A program made the translations under genes and the position numbers. DNA of 64,000 nucleotides, from positions 65,270,286 to 65,334,285 of the forward strand of contig CM067086.1 of assembly GCA_034008185.1 (NCBI GenBank), read 5' to 3'. The notes beneath the pieces are model-generated. The model saw nothing but the letters and a program-made list of their open reading frames with translations, ran no database searches and was not told the DNA's origin. The DNA comes from Gorsachius magnificus. Taxonomy: Eukaryota > Chordata > Aves > Pelecaniformes > Ardeidae. Shown here piece by piece: positions 9,081-63,267 of the stretch; position 1 is the stretch's first letter, and the number at the start of each line of letters is the position of its first letter.

Positions 9081-9509
9081 AATAACGTAAAGCAGGAGAG
9101 AGGAAAAAAGCTGTTCTAAATATTGAGAATTTTAAGCAGTCTGCCTCTTTTTGAGGTGATAAGGCAGCACGGAAATACCCCAAAATACTAATAGCTTGGC
9201 TAAATAAACTCATCCACTTCTATTAGCATCCTTAAGTGGTACTTGGTTCAGGTCCCAGGCACAAACCGAGCAGCACAAATATCCCCGCTCCGAGATGGTC
9301 ACATGAAATGCGGGTGCCCTCATCGTGTCCCCAGCCCTCAGCAGGGCACCCTCACCCATGGCAAAGGTGACTTTGCGCCACCACGATGTTCCCTCAATGG
9401 CCAGGACCAGAGGGGATTAGTTCAGACATGGGGGCAAGGGAGCACCAGTCACTGCCCCGAAACTCTGCTCCGGACCTTTGGCTATTTTCTGAAGCTGATT
9501 CTCACATAC

Positions 9510-9712
9510 AGCATCCTGGCTTGTATCAGGAGTGGTGTGGCCAGCAGGAGCAGGGCAGTGACCGTGACCATGTCCTGGGCGCTGGTGAGGCCGCCCCTTG
9601 AATGCTGGGGTCAGAGTTGGGCCCCTCACGCCCAGAAGGACCTGGAGGGGCTGGAGCGTGTCCAGAGAAGGGCAAGGAAGCTGGTGAGGGGTCTGGAGCC
9701 CAAGGCTGATGG
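9510..9712 (+). mobile_element. CR1 LINE fragment (internal ORF2 piece)
   Basis: Translation on the plus strand gives a degenerate but clear CR1 polyprotein segment: [13 protein letters not shown], then [18 protein letters not shown], then [21 protein letters not shown]. This matches the region just after the reverse-transcriptase core. Similarity stops soon after 9706. The upstream part of the same open frame (9243-9509) is not CR1-like. The copy is a short internal fragment and cannot be functional. Confidence 0.85.
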
Positions 9713-10534
9713 GCCTATATATGGGTATAGTGGCACATATATATTATGTTATAGTATACACTGGCCACCAATTTTGAAAGCAACTGCTTTTTGGGAGCCC
9801 AAGGGTGACTGCTATGTATTAAATATTGAGCACCATTTCTACATTGTAAGTTATGTTTGTGATATTGCATATGCTTTCTCGGTCTTGCTTAGATGATACA
9901 TACTTTGCGCTGAAGTACACTGGAGCTGGGAAGATCACAGGAAAAAGCAGACAGCACAAACAAAGGGAAACTGATGTCCAGGGGGCCAGAAAGTGGCAGG
10001 AGGTAAGCGGTGGAGGAGAAAGAGGGGAGATGGAGCTTCCAGGAGGAGCGAGATGAAATAGAAAAGGCAGGAGTGGGAGCAATCGGTGAGAAGGAGCAAG
10101 GAGAGTCTTTGGAGGCTGTAGACTGGGACACAAACTGGAAGGGGAAAAAATTTCAGAAAGCTCTCAGTAGAGAGCAACAAATGTTAAGAAAATGCGTGAG
10201 TCCCAACCGAGCATTAGTAGCAGGGCTACAGGAGAGATTGCCTAAGAAATGTACGGCCTTCCCTTAACCACTCTGGTTACTGTCTGGAGCTCAGGTGATG
10301 GAGCTCTGGACAAGAGCTGTGATAATTGCAACTTTTGAAATATGCTGCCTGCCCTTATTATAAGCAGAGTTGAAAGGGCCCTCACGTTCACAGCTCTACT
10401 CTGGTACAGCAAAAGCAGCAGCAGAGCATAGGGTTCTTCTGGGCAATTACTCCTTCCAGGTCTTGTTGAAGACACCAGGCAGAAGAAAGGGAGAACGTGC
10501 CTAGGTTTGAATGAAGAGGGCTGAGCAACAGCGA
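9713..10534. other. Non-coding DNA between two CR1 pieces
   Basis: The left part is AT-rich with alternating TATA words (9716-9760). Positions 9985-10200 are strongly purine-rich on the plus strand. No gene or repeat was recognised. The interval lies between an internal and a 3'-terminal CR1 fragment in the same orientation, so part of it may be inserted or replaced DNA within one former CR1 copy. Confidence 0.6.
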
Positions 10535-10697
10535 AGGGTAGAGTCCTCCTCCCTGGAGGTATTTAAAAGAAGGATAGATGAGACGCTTAGGGACATGGTT
10601 TAGTGGTGGGATGGCAGGGTTAGGTTAAAGGTTGGACTTGATGATCTTAAAGGTCTTTTCCAACCAAAGTGATTCTATGATTCTATGATTCTATGAT
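10535..10697 (+). mobile_element. CR1 LINE 3'-terminal fragment
   Basis: The copy begins near the CCTCCCTGGAGGTATTTAAAA segment, contains the 3'-UTR hairpin with GGTTGGACTTGATGATC pairing to TTTTCCAACC, and ends in three ATTCTATG units (about 10672-10696). It belongs to the tail type shared with 12619-12832 and 63056-63267. It is extremely 5'-truncated, as is usual for CR1. Confidence 0.9.
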
Positions 10698-11837
10698 CGT
10701 GAAAGCCACAGCATTGCAGGTGTACAGGGAAAAGCAAAAGAAGGAAAATGGGTGTGTAGGAAGCATTCATGGGAGCTCCTGGGAGTAAGAAAGGAGAAGG
10801 AACGACGGGGGAGGGAGTCTGGTGATCAAAAGGCTGTATCTAAATGGCTCCATGAACAGAGAGGGGGAATTAAGAACAGGATTAACTATGCAATTCTTAC
10901 TTTAGGGCTCTTGCAAGGTGCGGGGGGTCAGTTTGAGAAGGCAGGTGCCTGGCTCCAGGGGCCAGATCATGGCTCCAAGCTGGTGATAAGATGCACAGAG
11001 ATGTGCTGGCACTGATCTGGGCTCCAGGAGGAGCAAAGCTACACTGGTGCGGCTCCAAGCTAAGCTACTATTAGGCACCTTTCACAGTGTCTTGCTCTTT
11101 CTCTGTTTTTTGGAAGGGTGGGAGCCCGGGAGCGGTGCGGTGGGACTTGGACACCCAGCGAGGAGCCGAGCTCCCTGCCTGATGCAGGCTGAGGGGTGAC
11201 CCAGGGGTGTCAGCACTGCTGCTCCCCAAAACCTGAAAACACCCAGCGGGTCCCTGCTCCCCTCTCAGTTTCTCCCTTCCCTGGCACAAAAAATTCCCCT
11301 TTGGCTTCTTTCTTTTTTAAAAACTGGCAAAGAGCTTTTGACTATTTGTTTCCTGAAGTTTTGACATTATAGTTTCAATTTTTTTCCCAATAATATGGGC
11401 TAATACCTCATCCAAGTTGTAGATCTCTAACCCAAGCAAAATCTCTAATCCCCAATCCTTAGTTCTTTACAGTCCATATCTAGGATGACACACTGGGGTG
11501 GCCAATTTGCAACTGATTTGGTAGGAGGAACATCCATGCTCTGTTTATTCCTTCTCTCCCACCTTGTCCTGACACTTGCCCATACCCCATCCCCTGAAAA
11601 CTCGGAGTATCTGAGGCCACACAGCAACAGAGTTTGGCTGATGCCATCAATACAACCAGGAGTCTCTTTTAACACCCACCCACAAGCTGACCTCTGTCTG
11701 TGTAAATGATGAGACTGGGGCCCACAAAATGAACAAGCTGTTGGGAGACCCCAAATACCCAAAGCAAGCAGAGTTGGGAAGAGCTGCCTCCATGACATCC
11801 CCTTGATGCTGGACCAGCACACCTGGAGTGAAGAAGA
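10698..11837. other. Non-coding stretch, no recognisable feature
   Basis: GC-moderate sequence without a recognised gene, RNA or repeat. Short overlapping open frames on both strands (for example near 11071-11289) have no recognisable domain. Confidence 0.6.
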
Positions 11838-12035
11838 TTTGAGCACAAGTCTTATGAGGAGCGGCTGAGGGTGTTCAGCCTGGAGCAGAGGAGGCTGAGG
11901 GGAGCCCTCATCACTCCCTACAACTGCCTGACAGAAGGAGGGAGCCGGGGGGGAGTCGGTCTTTTCTCCCAAATAACAAGCGATAGAACGAAGGGAAAGG
12001 GCCTCAAGTTGCACCAGGGCAGGTTTAGATTGGAC
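11838..12035 (+). mobile_element. CR1 LINE, left part of an interrupted copy
   Basis: The sequence follows the CR1 ORF2 C-terminal region: CTTATGAGGAGCGGCTGAGG, GTTCAGCCTGGAGCAGAGG, then GTTGCACCAGGGCAGG and GGTTTAGATTGGAC. CR1 similarity stops abruptly at 12035 and resumes at 12619 with ATTAGGGAAAATTTC. If 12036-12618 is removed in thought, the two CR1 parts join without loss or gain. The first 14 bases of the following DNA (CTATAATTTGCATT) are not CR1. This and 12619-12832 are therefore best read as one copy split by a later event. Confidence 0.85.
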
Positions 12036-12618
12036 TATAATTTGCATTTCTTGATACAGCTTATATCAAAAAATGTTGGAAAGTCGCATTTCAATAAAAT
12101 ATTTAAATTGCTGACATAGCCTGTGACTGTCTGTACTACATAGACTCAAGATACACTGCAACTTGTTCTGAATTTCTCATCAGGTGTCAAACATGCAGAT
12201 TTATGGACTGCATAGACTAAATCACAGCAAATGCCCTAAATCTGGAACTATAGAAACCCACTTCCAGCTCCATGCTCAGGTAGGAATCCTATAGCCGTGG
12301 TCCAAAATCCTACAGGGAGTCCAAAAGCAAAGTACGGTACGAGAAAAATATCCTGGGGCTAAAAGCAAAATACTACAAGGGGCAAAATAGGGCTGAAGTT
12401 ACTGCTTGCCTACAGGTTTCACTGAAGATGAGAGCATGAGCCGATGAAGGAGCCTTGTTCAGCCTGGAGCAGAGGAGGCTGAGGGGAGCCCTCATCACTC
12501 CCTACAACTGCCTGACAGGAGGGGGGAGACGGGGGGGGTCAGTTTTTTCTCCCTAATAACAAGCAATAGGACTAGGGGAAATGGCCTCAAGTTGCACCAG
12601 GGCAGGTTTAGATTGGAC
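12036..12618 (+). repeat. 583-bp ectopic copy of distant DNA inserted in a CR1
   Basis: This block matches 62474-63055 over its whole length. By eye the only difference is a single extra base near 12057. It comprises about 415 bp of non-CR1 DNA followed by about 165 bp of CR1 ORF2 sequence belonging to the other locus's CR1. Its last 35 bp (12584-12618) exactly repeat the 35 bp preceding it (12001-12035). Identity with the distant locus ends at position 12618. Beyond it the flanking CR1 tails differ at roughly 20 of 205 positions. The block is too clean to be an old duplication. Its boundaries suggest a copied repair patch or an assembly error. Confidence 0.85.
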
Positions 12619-12832
12619 ATTAGGGAAAATTTCTTCCCCAAAAGGGCTGTCAGGCACTGGAAGGGGCTGCCCAGGGAAATGGTCGAATCCTCAGCCCTGG
12701 GGGGATTTAAAAGCCGGGCAGACGAGGTGCTTAGGGACATGGTTTGGTGGTGGGATGGCAGGGTTAGGGGAACGGTTGGACTTGATGATCTTAAAGGTCA
12801 TTCCAACCTAAACAGTTCTATGATTCTATGAT
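12619..12832 (+). mobile_element. CR1 LINE, right (3') part of the interrupted copy
   Basis: Continues the CR1 frame from the left part (AAATTTCTTCCCCAAAAGG, then CAGGCACTGGAAGGGGCTG), then the 3' UTR hairpin GGTTGGACTTGATGATC / CATTCCAACC and tail ATTCTATGATTCTATGAT ending about 12832. It carries bases different from the CR1 at 63056-63267 at about one position in ten, so the two are separate insertions of one subfamily. Confidence 0.9.
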
Positions 12833-45600: not shown

Positions 45601-48054
45601 TTTGGTGAGCGAGTCAAGATACTCCCTCAACTCTCAAAACAGCATGCAAAGGACAAATTGCTCTTTTTTGCATCTCTTCCCACTAAGCAGAAGGGAAAAA
45701 AAGACATGGGGTGGGAATGCAGAGGGAAAGGAGGAGAGTTCAGCATCTTCCCACGGCTCTACTTTGTCCAGGCTATAAACCTTTGTATGTGCTTATTCAC
45801 ATCCAAAAAAATGCACATGAAAATATAATTTTTCTCTTCTTTCCTCTGACCCCTCTGATATCTTCTTCACAGCAGAAGATTAAGTTCAATTTCAAGAATC
45901 CATTGGAGAAAAAATGCATGTGGAATTGAAAAAGAAGCATTTTATCATTAAAAGAAGACATCCCAGGGCATGTTAGGGGATACCAGCAGAGAGAGGCTGT
46001 TTCGTTGGGACCTCAGACCTTATCCCCCCCTGAATTTCCAGCTCTGCCTGGCACACTTGAAACAAGCAGCTAATTCAAACAGTTTATTTCAGGTCAGTAT
46101 TATTATTACAATAGAGTTCTATAACAGGCAGGATTTGGGGGCTGGGATTATGAGTTATCTGAACTTCAAGGTATTTATTCTAACTGTAAATGACCTTCCT
46201 GACCTCCCCTCATTCTCACTCCATCAATGTGCTGGACTTCATCATTTAAAGCCAAATCTAACATTACTTAAAGTCCAAATCAGCACCATCCACTTGTAAC
46301 AACGTCATTTGCAAACTGTCAAATAAATTAAATATTTAACTAATCCACTGACACCCCATCCTATTATTTCCCTGATCTGCAAAGACAGAAGTAAAACCCA
46401 AGTACATCATCCCAGCTTTCTGTGGACATTTATTTATGTCTCACAGTCATATCCCAGCACCGCAGGAGTCAGAGCCATTTCAGCCTCTGCTCAGCCGATC
46501 CACAAAGTCCAGCCAAAGTCACGGAAAAGTCGGTCTTGTTGGATTCGCTGTATTGCCTCATCCGCTTGTCACCCACTTGCCAAGCAGCGGGGCATTTCCT
46601 GAACAAAAATTTGTATTATCAAGTCCATATATCTTATATCAGTTCTGGGGTTGCCTTCTTCATTTATAGAAAATAAGAAGGGAGACATAGCACAAGTACG
46701 CTCGAAGAAGAGCGGTGCAAGAAGCACAACGTTGCATGCATAGAGCTGGAAAGGAGAAGTGTATTTAATCTCTTCAGATGCAAGGGTTTCCTTGCCTGCC
46801 AGCCATGCAGCAGTGTTTGTAGGACGCAGGAACTGCTTCAGGGAGGCAGATTCTCCTGGCACCCCCAAGGACAGAGTTCGCAATGCGCTTCAGCAGTCAG
46901 CGCACACAGAAACTTTGCCATTTATATATAATGGTTATGTGACATTCCCTGATCTTAAAATAACAAAGCATTTTAATCACAGAGACTTTGACCTTTTGGT
47001 CAAGTGGAACGCTTGCTATTTAATTTCTTTACTTTTTATACAACACATTAGATCTTCCCTGTAAAGTAACTCGGGAGACTGCTCAGGAGAGAAAGGCTGG
47101 GTTTGTGGTAAAGGCAACCACAAAAGGTTCAGCTCAGGTCTGTGTACAGCCTTCCTGGCTGGGTTCAGGCAATTTGCTCATGCTTTGACCCATCCAACCC
47201 AGTTTTAGTTGCCCAAGGGGGACACGCAAGTGTCTTTTTGCATCCTCTGGGAAGTCAGCAGAAAGGAAGGACCTTGTCTGCAGGATAATTCAGCCTATCC
47301 AGAACTGAAATGCATTTCAGAGACACCTCTTTCTCCAGTGCCTGATCTGAAGTGGATTATTGGGCCCCCTACATGCAGAAATTTGCTGCCTTGGTTACAT
47401 GCCTGAAGATTCATGGGGTCTTTTTATCTTATTATTCCAGGCAGGAAGATCCAAATGGCATCAAGCAATCAGATTTTGAGGACCAAAAGCAGGAGTGATA
47501 CCAAGAAAGACAGTCCCATGTTCTCATACAAGAGGTGGTTCACATGGACATGCGGTCACAGTTGATCCGGGCAGGCAGGACAGGCCTGGGCTAACAGCCC
47601 CAGTGGCCATCCCCGCCCTAATCCCGGGCTGCGTTTGGAACCCACTGAGGTTCACCCACCTTTAAAAGTCACTCACATAAACTACAGAAGAAATCTGTCA
47701 AATTGGCTGAGCCTCTTCAAATAGCACATGCATACATTTGCCTACCCACCAGGCAATGGTGCGATTTATATCTCTTTGCATACGGTCATTGAATTTTGTC
47801 AAGCACCATTAGAGTGGCAGTGATGAATTGGAGTTTTGTAGCAAGTCCACACAACACCAGCAGCAGACACCAAGATTAGATGAACCACCTCCCACCCTGC
47901 CTTCAGAAGGACTGCATCAGAGCATCCCAAATCAGAGCTTTGCTCCTGGAGCTAAAGGAATTCTTAAAGGGCAACACTGGTAGGTTGTTCATCCTTCCAG
48001 CAGATGATCTAAAGAGCTGACCATCGCAGCTACGTGGACACCTCTACGTGCAAA
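45601..48054. other. Gene-free DNA between CR1 copies
   Basis: No coding gene, RNA gene or recognised repeat in 2.4 kb. Open frames of up to about 110 codons (45970-46299, 46569-46883) have no recognisable domain. Confidence 0.55.
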
Positions 48055-48764
48055 GGACGTGCCGAGAGGGACTTGGGCGTGCTGGTGGATGAAAAGCTGG
48101 ACATGAGCCGGCAATGTGCAATGGCAGCCCAGAAGGCCAACCGTACCCTGGGCTGCATCAGGAGAAGCGTGGCCAGCAGGTCAAGGGAGGGGATTCTGCC
48201 CCTCTACTCTGCTCTGGTGAGACCCCACCTAGAGTACTGTGTCCAGCTCTGGAGCCCTCAGCACAAGAAGGACATGGGACTGTTGGAGCGGGTCCAGAGG
48301 AGGGCTACTAAAATGATCCGAGGGCTGGAGCACCTCTCTTATGAGGACAGGCTGAGGGAGTTGGGCTTGTTCAGCCTGGAGAAGAGAAGGCTGCGGGGAG
48401 ACCTGATTATGGCCTTTCAGTATCTAAAGGGGGCCTATAGGAAAGATGGGGAAAATCTTTTTAGTAGGGCCAGCTGTGACAGGACAAGGGGTAACGGTTT
48501 TAAACTAAACCAGGGTAGGTTTAGACTGGATATAAGGAGGAAATTCTTTACAACGAGGGTGGTGAAACACTGGAACAGGTTGCCCAGAGAGGCGGTGGAG
48601 GCCCCATCCCTGGAAACATTCCAGGCCAGGTTGGATGGGGCTCTGAGCAACCTGATCTAGTTAGTGGTGTCCCTGCTCACTGCAGGGGGGTTGGACTAGA
48701 TGATCTCTAGGGGTCCCTTCCAACCCAAAACATTCTATGATTCTATGATTCTATGATTCTATGA
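48055..48764 (+). mobile_element. CR1 LINE, 5'-truncated, best preserved copy
   Basis: This carries about 600 bp of uninterrupted CR1 ORF2 C-terminal coding sequence, a short 3' UTR with the CR1 stem-loop (GGTTGGACTAGATGATCTC pairing with CCCTTCCAACC, about 48689-48726) and four ATTCTATG units (48731-48764). The 5' end is truncated near 48055, which is normal for CR1. No target-site duplication is evident. The low number of disabling changes points to a relatively recent insertion. Confidence 0.95.
48061..48660 (+). pseudogene. CR1 ORF2 C-terminal fragment (reverse-transcriptase polyprotein)
   Basis: About 200 codons are open to the natural stop at 48658-48660. Recognisable CR1 blocks in order are [100 protein letters not shown] and [20 protein letters not shown]. 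These are the region after the polymerase core. The endonuclease domain, the catalytic YADD-type motif of the polymerase and ORF1 are all absent because of 5' truncation, so the fragment cannot make an active enzyme. In-frame ATG codons upstream (48034) lie in flanking DNA and are fortuitous. Confidence 0.93.
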
Positions 48765-60416: not shown

Positions 60417-62472
60417 CAAGTATAAAAACTGCTTTTACCATAAGAGTAGGGAAACACAGAATAATTTACAAACTGACATCTGATGGATTTAGAAATGTTC
60501 CTTTGGGACAAACACTTGAAAGTATTTCATCCATGCTGCGATATTTTCACTGGGTTTAATAAGTTTGGAATCCAGTCTCTCCTTCCCTCTCCCAAGCCAC
60601 ACACAGGTGCCAAAACTGGATCTAAGAGGAGGGTGTATCCAGTGCCACTTCCACAGCCACGGCTGCCGTATTCCCTGAGACACCCACAGCCTGGCTCCTC
60701 TTCACTTTCACCGTAGGGACGTTGGTGGTGGACAAAAGGAAGAAGAAAATATTTCAGTGAAAGGACAGAACTCTCAAGGCTATTAATTCATAGAATCCAA
60801 AATATCCCGCATGCTGGGCATGGATGCTAGTGGACAGAGATGCCCGGCTCCCCCTGAGGATGCCACTGCTTTCCAGAGGAACGGGAAGGTGAGGCTGCAG
60901 GGGAACTTATGCCACCTCTAGGAAATTTGGGCAGATCCCTCAATATCCTTCCATCTTTTAAACAAAGGGGGAACTTGCCAGGGTATAAATTTGTAGTTCT
61001 TTGGTTCCCAGCAAGGGAACTAACTCGTCTAAATACAACTGGTCCCAATTAAGGCATGCAGCCAAATTAAGCCCTTGAAGCTGCGTGGTCTTGTACTTGC
61101 AACAGAGCTCCCTAAAAGCCAGGGACAGTGAGGGCAACAGCAACTCTTTGCAAATGTTTGTGAGGCTTCGCTATTGGAATGAGCACCTTGCACTCTCCAT
61201 CTGCCTCAGATGTGTGTAGCCACATGAGTTTTTACACATCCTTTGGTTAAACCTGAGTGAAATTTAGCACTCTGGGACACCATGGGGAGTTGCCCATTTG
61301 CCCATTTCTCCATGGCTCTAAGCCACGTAAATGGTGCTTCCTCGAGGACAGTAGAAGCATCATTTGAAATTCCTGCTCTGGAAGAGGCTGTGAGTGTTAT
61401 TTCTTTGGATTTTGAAGACAGGCAATAAGAAGCCTGAAGAAAGGGACATGAGCGTGTATGTGAAAAGCAGTTGAGGCACCAGACCAGTCCTCCCACAAGC
61501 TCTTTGCTTGGCCTTCATTTACAAGACGGTTCCTCCCTTGCAGAATGGAGGCAATGAGCCCCTGTACTGCCAGGTGTGGTGTGAATTAATTCATTAGCAC
61601 TGCCAAAGTATCCAAATGATAGATTAATTTCATAACTAATGATAACTAAAGTATTTATTAATAGAGAGAGTAATAGCTAGAGTTCCATCCAGCACGAAGT
61701 TCTTTTATCGGCTCACCCATAAATACCTGATTATTTAGGGTCAACCTTTCTTTTTTTTTCCCCACAATCCATAACATCCTCGTCCACATTTTTCTAAGGT
61801 CCCCACCTGCCTTTCTCAAAACCTTTTCACCATTTCCATTCCAGGCTGATTTTTCCTTCAGGTTTTTGAGGCATGCACAGGTTTGACAAAACAGCCACAT
61901 TTGAAGCAAAAATGGACCAGCTTCCAAGGCTCAGTGCCGCGATGTGAAAACGACCTTTGTGGGAGCATAAAGAGACCTGTTTATCCCAGAAATATTTTTC
62001 CTCAGAATAAAGGCCCACTTGGGCTGCAAAAGTAGCTTGTCTGCCCGAGAAAGAGCCTGCACATCTATTTACTTTCATAAATGGACTTGGATTTGTGATC
62101 TTAGCACACACGAAAAATCTGGAGTGTTAAAAGTCCTGTGTTCCATCGATAATAATTTATACATCTCACACTGGAAAGCTTTTTTGAATGACAAGTACAG
62201 GGTAAAATACAGCCAGTGGTGTTTATATTAGTTCTTTTTTTTTTTTTCTAATAGGCTTATATAGTAACTCCTGTAACAATTAATCCAAGCACAGAGGCTG
62301 AAACTATCTACAGAGCAAGAGGATAGCATGAAAATAAAATATTTCATTAAAAAATGTGCTCTGGTTTAAAAATTCTTAGTTATGTGAAAGGAATTGGCTT
62401 TCTTCCTTTTGTAGTGTTTCCTTATTAAAGAACGGCGGTAAGTTAAGGGGAGTTGGGCAATTATACTATTAT

Positions 62473-63055
62473 ACTATAATTTGCATTTCTTGATAAGCTT
62501 ATATCAAAAAATGTTGGAAAGTCGCATTTCAATAAAATATTTAAATTGCTGACATAGCCTGTGACTGTCTGTACTACATAGACTCAAGATACACTGCAAC
62601 TTGTTCTGAATTTCTCATCAGGTGTCAAACATGCAGATTTATGGACTGCATAGACTAAATCACAGCAAATGCCCTAAATCTGGAACTATAGAAACCCACT
62701 TCCAGCTCCATGCTCAGGTAGGAATCCTATAGCCGTGGTCCAAAATCCTACAGGGAGTCCAAAAGCAAAGTACGGTACGAGAAAAATATCCTGGGGCTAA
62801 AAGCAAAATACTACAAGGGGCAAAATAGGGCTGAAGTTACTGCTTGCCTACAGGTTTCACTGAAGATGAGAGCATGAGCCGATGAAGGAGCCTTGTTCAG
62901 CCTGGAGCAGAGGAGGCTGAGGGGAGCCCTCATCACTCCCTACAACTGCCTGACAGGAGGGGGGAGACGGGGGGGGTCAGTTTTTTCTCCCTAATAACAA
63001 GCAATAGGACTAGGGGAAATGGCCTCAAGTTGCACCAGGGCAGGTTTAGATTGGA
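62473..63055 (+). repeat. Probable donor of the 583-bp duplicated block
   Basis: This matches 12034-12617 with a single 1-bp difference (62495 region). To its left, unique DNA continues without any junction signature (the block merely follows an ATTATACTATTATACTATAA run). On its right it runs into the 3' part of its own CR1. Because this locus is continuous while the 12-kb locus has a CR1 interrupted at a 35-bp direct repeat, this copy is the likelier source. The about 415 bp of non-CR1 sequence has no recognised family. Confidence 0.8.
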
Positions 63056-63267
63056 TATTAGGGAAAATTTCTTCCCCAAAAGGGCTGTCAAGCACTGGAT
63101 GGGGCTGCCCAGGGAAGGGGTCGAGTCCCCATCCCTGGGGGAATTTAAAAGCCGGGCAGGCAAGGTGCTTAGGGACATGGTTTGGTGGTGGGATGGCAGG
63201 GTTAGGGTAATGGTTGGGCTTGATCATCTTAAAGGTCTTTTCCAACCCAAACGATTCTATGATTCTA
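62880..63267 (+). mobile_element. CR1 LINE 3' fragment
   Basis: It starts near GATGAAGGAGCCTTGTTCAG, runs through the ORF2 C-terminal blocks with several frame-breaking changes, and continues into the 3' UTR (GGTTGGGCTTGATCATC / TTTTCCAACC). The decayed tail ATTCTATGATTCTAAGT ends about 63267. The first about 175 bp are duplicated in the 12-kb locus and the remainder is not. Confidence 0.9.

What the first reader, a model, noticed from the sequence alone, without database searches (positions are those of the whole stretch)
12001..12618. A 583-bp block of distant DNA interrupts a CR1 exactly at a 35-bp direct repeat
Positions 12001-12035 and 12584-12618 are identical 35-bp CR1 sequence. Deleting 12036-12618 restores a continuous CR1. 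The block equals 62474-63055 with one 1-bp indel, and begins with 415 bp of non-CR1 DNA joined to CR1 with 1-2 bp of overlap (AC). This is the expected product if a broken CR1 end invaded a related CR1 about 50 kb away, copied leftward through it into unique DNA, and was then end-joined to the other CR1 end. It would be a homology-primed, end-joined repair patch that duplicates unique sequence between LINE copies.
Basis: partly seen in the sequence, partly recalled or inferred. Interest (0 to 1): 0.75.

Follow-up and report, generated by a model that had tools for sequence, protein, structure and literature searches.

The report
DNA repair patch inside old LINE
A roughly 580-base piece of DNA from 50 kb away on the same chromosome has been copied into the middle of an old retrotransposon remnant, very probably while a broken chromosome was being mended, which is a known kind of repair scar and a tidy, apparently recent example rather than a new phenomenon.

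Summary
A CR1-like LINE at about 11.8-12.8 kb is split by a block (12036-12617) copied from 62475-63055, 49.9 kb away in the same orientation: no substitutions, one 1-bp indel. The right junction is in register inside CR1 homology: donor sequence gives way to native sequence within a 35-bp identical tract. The left junction has only 2 bp of overlap (AC), which chance gives 15% of the time. Twenty of 20 fetched CR1 paralogs cross the insertion point unbroken. Best account: a break in the CR1, copying primed by homology from the right end, then end joining to the left end. Fork template switching gives the same product and is not excluded. Assembly error is unlikely but untested: no reads or relatives were available. 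The class is known: repair-mediated duplications inside TEs were catalogued across vertebrates in 2009 (PMC2671141). This is a clean new member.

The parts
11841..12035 (+). left arm of the interrupted CR1-like LINE remnant (recipient)
   Evidence: aligns to paralogs; aligns to the donor's CR1
12034..12035 (.). left junction; AC shared by recipient and donor (62473-62474)
   Evidence: 2 bp or more of overlap in 15% of random joins
12036..12455 (+). copied block, non-CR1 part; found at two places in the genome
   Evidence: bases 12036-12430 were the genome query
12057..12057 (.). only difference between block and donor (extra C)
12456..12617 (+). copied block, CR1 part (copy of the donor's CR1)
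12583..12617 (.). 35-bp tract in which donor sequence changes to native sequence (right junction, in register)
   Evidence: T at 12582 is donor-like, C at 12618 is native
12618..12832 (+). right arm of the interrupted CR1 with its 3' end
62473..63055 (+). donor (template) of the block
62894..63267 (+). CR1-like remnant at the donor locus, uninterrupted
62000..62472 (+). donor's left flank, not copied, found once in the genome (the query ran to 62473)

Best explanation
A double-strand break arose inside a CR1 remnant at about 12035|12618. The right-hand end, whose CR1 sequence resembles a CR1 remnant 50 kb away, paired with that copy and primed DNA synthesis leftward through about 160 bp of CR1 and about 420 bp of unrelated flanking DNA. 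The new strand then came off and was end-joined to the left-hand end with 0-2 bp of overlap. Shown: donor, acceptor, junctions, copy number, uninterrupted form in paralogs. Inferred: the break, the direction of synthesis and the joining pathway. It is read as a recent repair scar, with no function proposed.
For: The block copies 62475-63055 with 0 substitutions and one indel, while the CR1 arms beside it differ from the donor by about 7% (left) and 9% (right). The right junction is in register within CR1 homology and the left one is not homologous. The non-CR1 part was found at 2 places and the donor flank at 1, whereas the insert in paralog L018, queried the same way, gave 40 matches, itself included (40 scored of 2772 candidates). 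20 of 20 paralogs cross the site unbroken. No target base need have been lost. No run of 6 or more A or T lies within 60 bp of the right junction; near the left there is one A6 at 12068, inside the block and also in the donor.
Against: No reads, other individuals or sister species could be examined, so the event's reality and date rest on one assembly. Acceptor and donor CR1 differ by 7-9%, and mismatch repair restrains pairing of diverged sequences (stated in the start of the abstract of PMC5641073, seen in the listing). The native C at 12618 lies at or near the priming end, opposite a donor T; keeping it means that a mismatched primer end escaped proofreading or that the two ends overlapped by up to 36 bp. 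Two bp of overlap is no evidence for a particular end-joining pathway.
Confidence: 0.72

Rival explanations
1. Replication-fork template switching (FoSTeS/MMBIR-like): the nascent strand left the recipient at about 12035 using AC, copied the donor rightward and returned to the recipient through CR1 homology.
For: Gives the same two junctions; a 2-bp overlap at the left fits a microhomology switch, though chance gives as much in 15% of joins.
Against: Departure and return would be independent, yet the net change to the recipient beyond the patch is 0-36 bp; a two-ended break explains this directly. Weak evidence only.
Confidence: 0.17
2. Assembly error: reads of the 62-kb locus were wrongly joined into the 12-kb CR1.
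For: Near-identity of block and donor; no reads were available to check. The 200 kb beside the window hold 7,447 N, which may be gaps or withheld stretches.
Against: The left join has 2 bp of overlap, not the long overlap that an assembler uses (inference); the copies differ by an indel outside a homopolymer; the window itself has no N and the genome is in 36 contigs.
Confidence: 0.06
3. RNA-templated insertion: a transcript of the donor locus was reverse transcribed into the CR1, by LINE target priming or as a cDNA patch.
For: Such insertions are described in humans, classes 1 and 2 (PMC5110952, abstract and section 9); a direct repeat flanks the block.
Against: No poly(A/T) tail at either end. 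The flanking repeat is the end of about 160 bp of in-register CR1 homology at about 93%, not a free-standing target-site duplication.
Confidence: 0.03
4. Retrotransposition of a CR1 read-through transcript from the donor, or unequal crossing over between the two CR1s.
For: Block and right CR1 arm together follow the donor's order to the CR1 3' end.
Against: Retrotransposition would leave the right arm as identical as the block; it has 20 differences in 212 columns. Crossing over would have two homologous sides and would duplicate the 50 kb between the copies; no such repeat appears in the window or in the high-identity pairs of the 264 kb around it.
Confidence: 0.02

Closest known systems
Repair-mediated duplications (RDs), Pace et al. 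2009, PLoS Genet, PMC2671141 (abstract and sections 6, 7, 12, 17 read; further passages)
   Same: A transposable element interrupted by a short block found at one other place in the genome, with microhomology and no retrotransposition marks; interpreted as break repair by ectopic copying. The confident (proximal) RDs reach 619 bp. Chicken has 6 (0.08 per Mb of TE).
   Different: Donor and acceptor here are 49.9 kb apart, beyond the 5 kb inside which that paper was confident. One junction rests on CR1-to-CR1 homology, and part of the block is itself TE, which may hide it from a pipeline that looks for non-TE inserts (inference).
[quoted passage not shown] 2016, PMC5104497 (start of abstract in a listing, and passages); the same idea in Richardson and Jasin 2000 (title in a reference list; text not held)
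   Same: Copying by homology from one end, then rejoining to the other end with microhomology or added bases; one clone had one homologous and one non-homologous breakpoint.
   Different: Those are induced breaks in reporters in mouse ES cells; here a natural event, with diverged LINE copies as the homology.
Class 2 templated sequence insertion polymorphisms, PMC5110952 (abstract and section 9)
   Same: Patch from a distant locus placed at a break, without target-site duplication or poly(A).
   Different: Class 2 junctions show end-joining features, and the authors favour an RNA template; here one junction is homologous.

Membership tests
Repair-mediated duplication (Pace et al. 2009) | TE interrupted by at least 50 bp, ancestral TE continuous | tested here: met
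   insert of about 582 bp; 20 of 20 fetched paralogs cross the site
Repair-mediated duplication (Pace et al. 2009) | insert present at only one other place in the genome | tested here: met
   2 places, counting the acceptor, for the non-CR1 part (12036-12430); the CR1 part of the block is high copy
Repair-mediated duplication (Pace et al. 2009) | break-repair marks at the junctions, no poly(A/T) end | tested here: met
   2 bp of overlap at left (not above chance), homology at right, no poly(A/T) end
Repair-mediated duplication (Pace et al. 2009) | donor within 5 kb (the paper's confident set) | tested here: not met
   49,856 bp; the paper's wider set had 58 same-chromosome cases over 5 kb
Repair-mediated duplication (Pace et al. 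2009) | empty site in a related species or individual | not testable with these tools
   the genome tool says that no relatives are held
Coupled homologous and end-joining repair | one homologous junction in register, one non-homologous junction | tested here: met
Coupled homologous and end-joining repair | initiated by a double-strand break | not testable with these tools
   inferred from the product only
LINE-mediated (class 1) templated insertion | poly(A) tail and target-site duplication | tested here: not met
   no tail; the repeat is part of longer CR1 homology
CR1 LINE (the host element) | ATTCTATG repeats at the 3' end and many genomic copies | tested here: met
   the name CR1 and this hallmark are recalled, no TE library was available
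CR1 LINE (the host element) | recognisable reverse transcriptase or endonuclease domain | tested here: inconclusive
   Pfam gave 0 families for 2 of 2 ORFs tried (48013-48657, 9204-9893); none of the copies in the window is full length

The most novel reading that the evidence does not exclude
Diverged CR1 copies (7-9% apart) act as priming sites for one-ended ectopic repair over tens of kilobases in a bird-like germline, so that a TE family repeatedly spreads unique flanking DNA in patches that published pipelines miss because the patch ends in the same TE family as the acceptor.
Probability: 0.12. Interest if true: 0.5.

Novelty: new member of a known kind. Interest (0 to 1): 0.25.

Why it matters
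It is a cleanly legible natural example of a repair that seems to start by homology and end by end joining. It suggests that scans for repair-mediated duplications should allow patches whose one end lies in the same TE family as the acceptor, which might raise the low count reported for chicken (6; PMC2671141). As a single case it changes little.

Tried and rejected
The tool warns that it skips very common words, so 2 is what it found, not a proof.

Hairpin at the donor's left edge as a stop for copying: 62445-62505 folds no better than shuffles on the plus strand (84 of 200 as good) and weakly better on the minus strand (18 of 200); not used.

Long identical runs in the CR1 arms as signs of further gene conversion: shuffle p = 0.03 and 0.04 for two runs picked after looking; not claimed.

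Searches that gave nothing: phage collection, no match; Rfam, 0; tRNA, 0; Pfam on two ORFs, 0 families. Paper searches for CR1 with ATTCTATG and for repair-mediated duplication with CR1 gave 0 papers each; one search gave 3, judged unrelated from the listing alone. Searches gave listings; of the papers listed I opened three: PMC5104497, PMC5110952 and PMC2671141.

In the 264 kb read (window plus 200 kb, of which 7,447 bases are N), 8 of 97 repeat pairs had at least 94% identity over at least 80 bp; the pair studied here scores highest of those eight, and the other seven were not examined further.

Full report
What is there. At about 11.84-12.83 kb is the 3' part of a CR1-like LINE. I name it CR1 from recall (many copies, ATTCTATG repeats at its 3' end); no TE library was on hand, and Pfam gave no family for two ORFs of such copies. 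It is split by a block. Bases 12034-12617 align to 62473-63055 with 583 matches and a single indel, an extra C at 12057. The flanking repeat is 36 bp, one base more than reported.

Junctions. On the right, the last donor-specific base is T at 12582 (donor 63020; the recipient's left arm has G at the matching place, 11999), and the first native-specific base is C at 12618 (donor T at 63056). The change from donor to native sequence therefore lies in the 35 bp 12583-12617, in register with CR1. C at that site is ordinary for the family: 13 of 20 paralogs have C and 7 have T. On the left, the recipient reads ...TTGGAC and the donor ...TTATAC before the common TATAATTTGC, so only AC is shared. Two or more shared bases occur in 15.5% of random joins within the window (200,000 draws, pairs under 2 kb apart counted as misses), so the overlap says nothing about pathway. 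Beyond the patch the recipient need have lost or gained no base.

Which copy is the original. At 62 kb the non-CR1 part continues leftward into DNA found once in the genome, and the CR1 there is unbroken. At 12 kb the block cuts a CR1 that is continuous when the flanks are joined. I fetched 20 paralogs, the best 20 of the 38 CR1 places that one search listed outside the window; that list is itself capped (40 scored of 2,291 candidates). All 20 of these align across the join in one piece. The 12-kb site is thus the acceptor.

More than chance, and apparently recent. In the block there are 0 substitutions. In the adjoining right CR1 arm there are 20 differences in 212 columns, 19 of them substitutions (Fisher p = 6e-12 against the block), and in the left arm 12 in 163. 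The non-CR1 part was found at 2 places in the genome. The tool skips very common words, but a control shows that a dispersed insert is found readily: paralog L018 is interrupted elsewhere in its CR1, and that insert gave 40 matches, itself included. If the assumed neutral rates hold, the copy is younger than about 1.0-1.7 million years (rates recalled).

Mechanism. The product has one homologous and one non-homologous junction. The simplest account is a break in the acceptor CR1, pairing of the right end with the related CR1 50 kb away (212 columns at 91%, with identical runs of 35 and 34 bp on either side of the C/T difference at 12618), synthesis leftward for about 580 bases, and end joining to the left end. 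The retained native C at 12618 means that the primer end was not trimmed back past it, or that the two ends overlapped by up to 36 bp. Fork template switching is a fair rival with the same product. Target-primed reverse transcription is disfavoured by the lack of a tail and by the in-register homology. Assembly error is disfavoured by the short left overlap and by the indel outside a homopolymer, but no reads could be examined.

Comparison with what is known. Pace et al. 2009 found 1,136 interrupted human TEs whose insert has one other copy, 824 of them with the donor within 5 kb and up to 619 bp long, and 6 repair-mediated duplications in chicken. Of 29 duplications with the donor on another chromosome that they examined, 17 carried poly(A/T) ends; the present case has none, but same-chromosome cases beyond 5 kb were not examined in the sections that I read. 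Hartlerode et al. 2016 describe recombination that starts by homology and ends by rejoining with microhomology or added bases in mouse cells (passages). The present case brings these two together: a natural patch whose one end is homologous because acceptor and donor belong to one LINE family. A search for CR1 together with repair-mediated duplication gave no paper in the held library; this does not show that none exists.

Verdict. It is a neat new member of a known class, of modest interest.

Noticed in passing
9508-9713 and 11841-12035: The same CR1 seems to have been split earlier by about 2.1 kb: in paralogs that match both pieces, 9508-9713 is followed by 11841 onward with, as a rule, 12-18 bp counted twice. 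Two parts of that insert, 9700-10528 and 10730-11832, were each found once in the genome, so no surviving donor was seen.
   Followed up: partly
10529-10697: A further CR1 3' end in the same orientation lies inside that 2.1-kb insert, 84-85% like the 12-kb and 62-kb copies.
   Followed up: partly
L018:697-1031: A paralogous CR1 is interrupted by a dispersed repeat (40 matches including itself, the others at 93-95%; 40 scored of 2772 candidates); an ordinary repeat insertion, used as a control.
   Followed up: yes
48060-48756: A younger CR1-like copy is 94-95% identical over 690 and 528 bp to two inverted copies, 9.3-9.9 and 35.9-36.4 kb left of the window's start.
   Followed up: no
62462-62490: The donor's left edge lies in AT-rich sequence with a near-palindrome; folding of the surrounding 61 bases is not significant.
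   Followed up: partly
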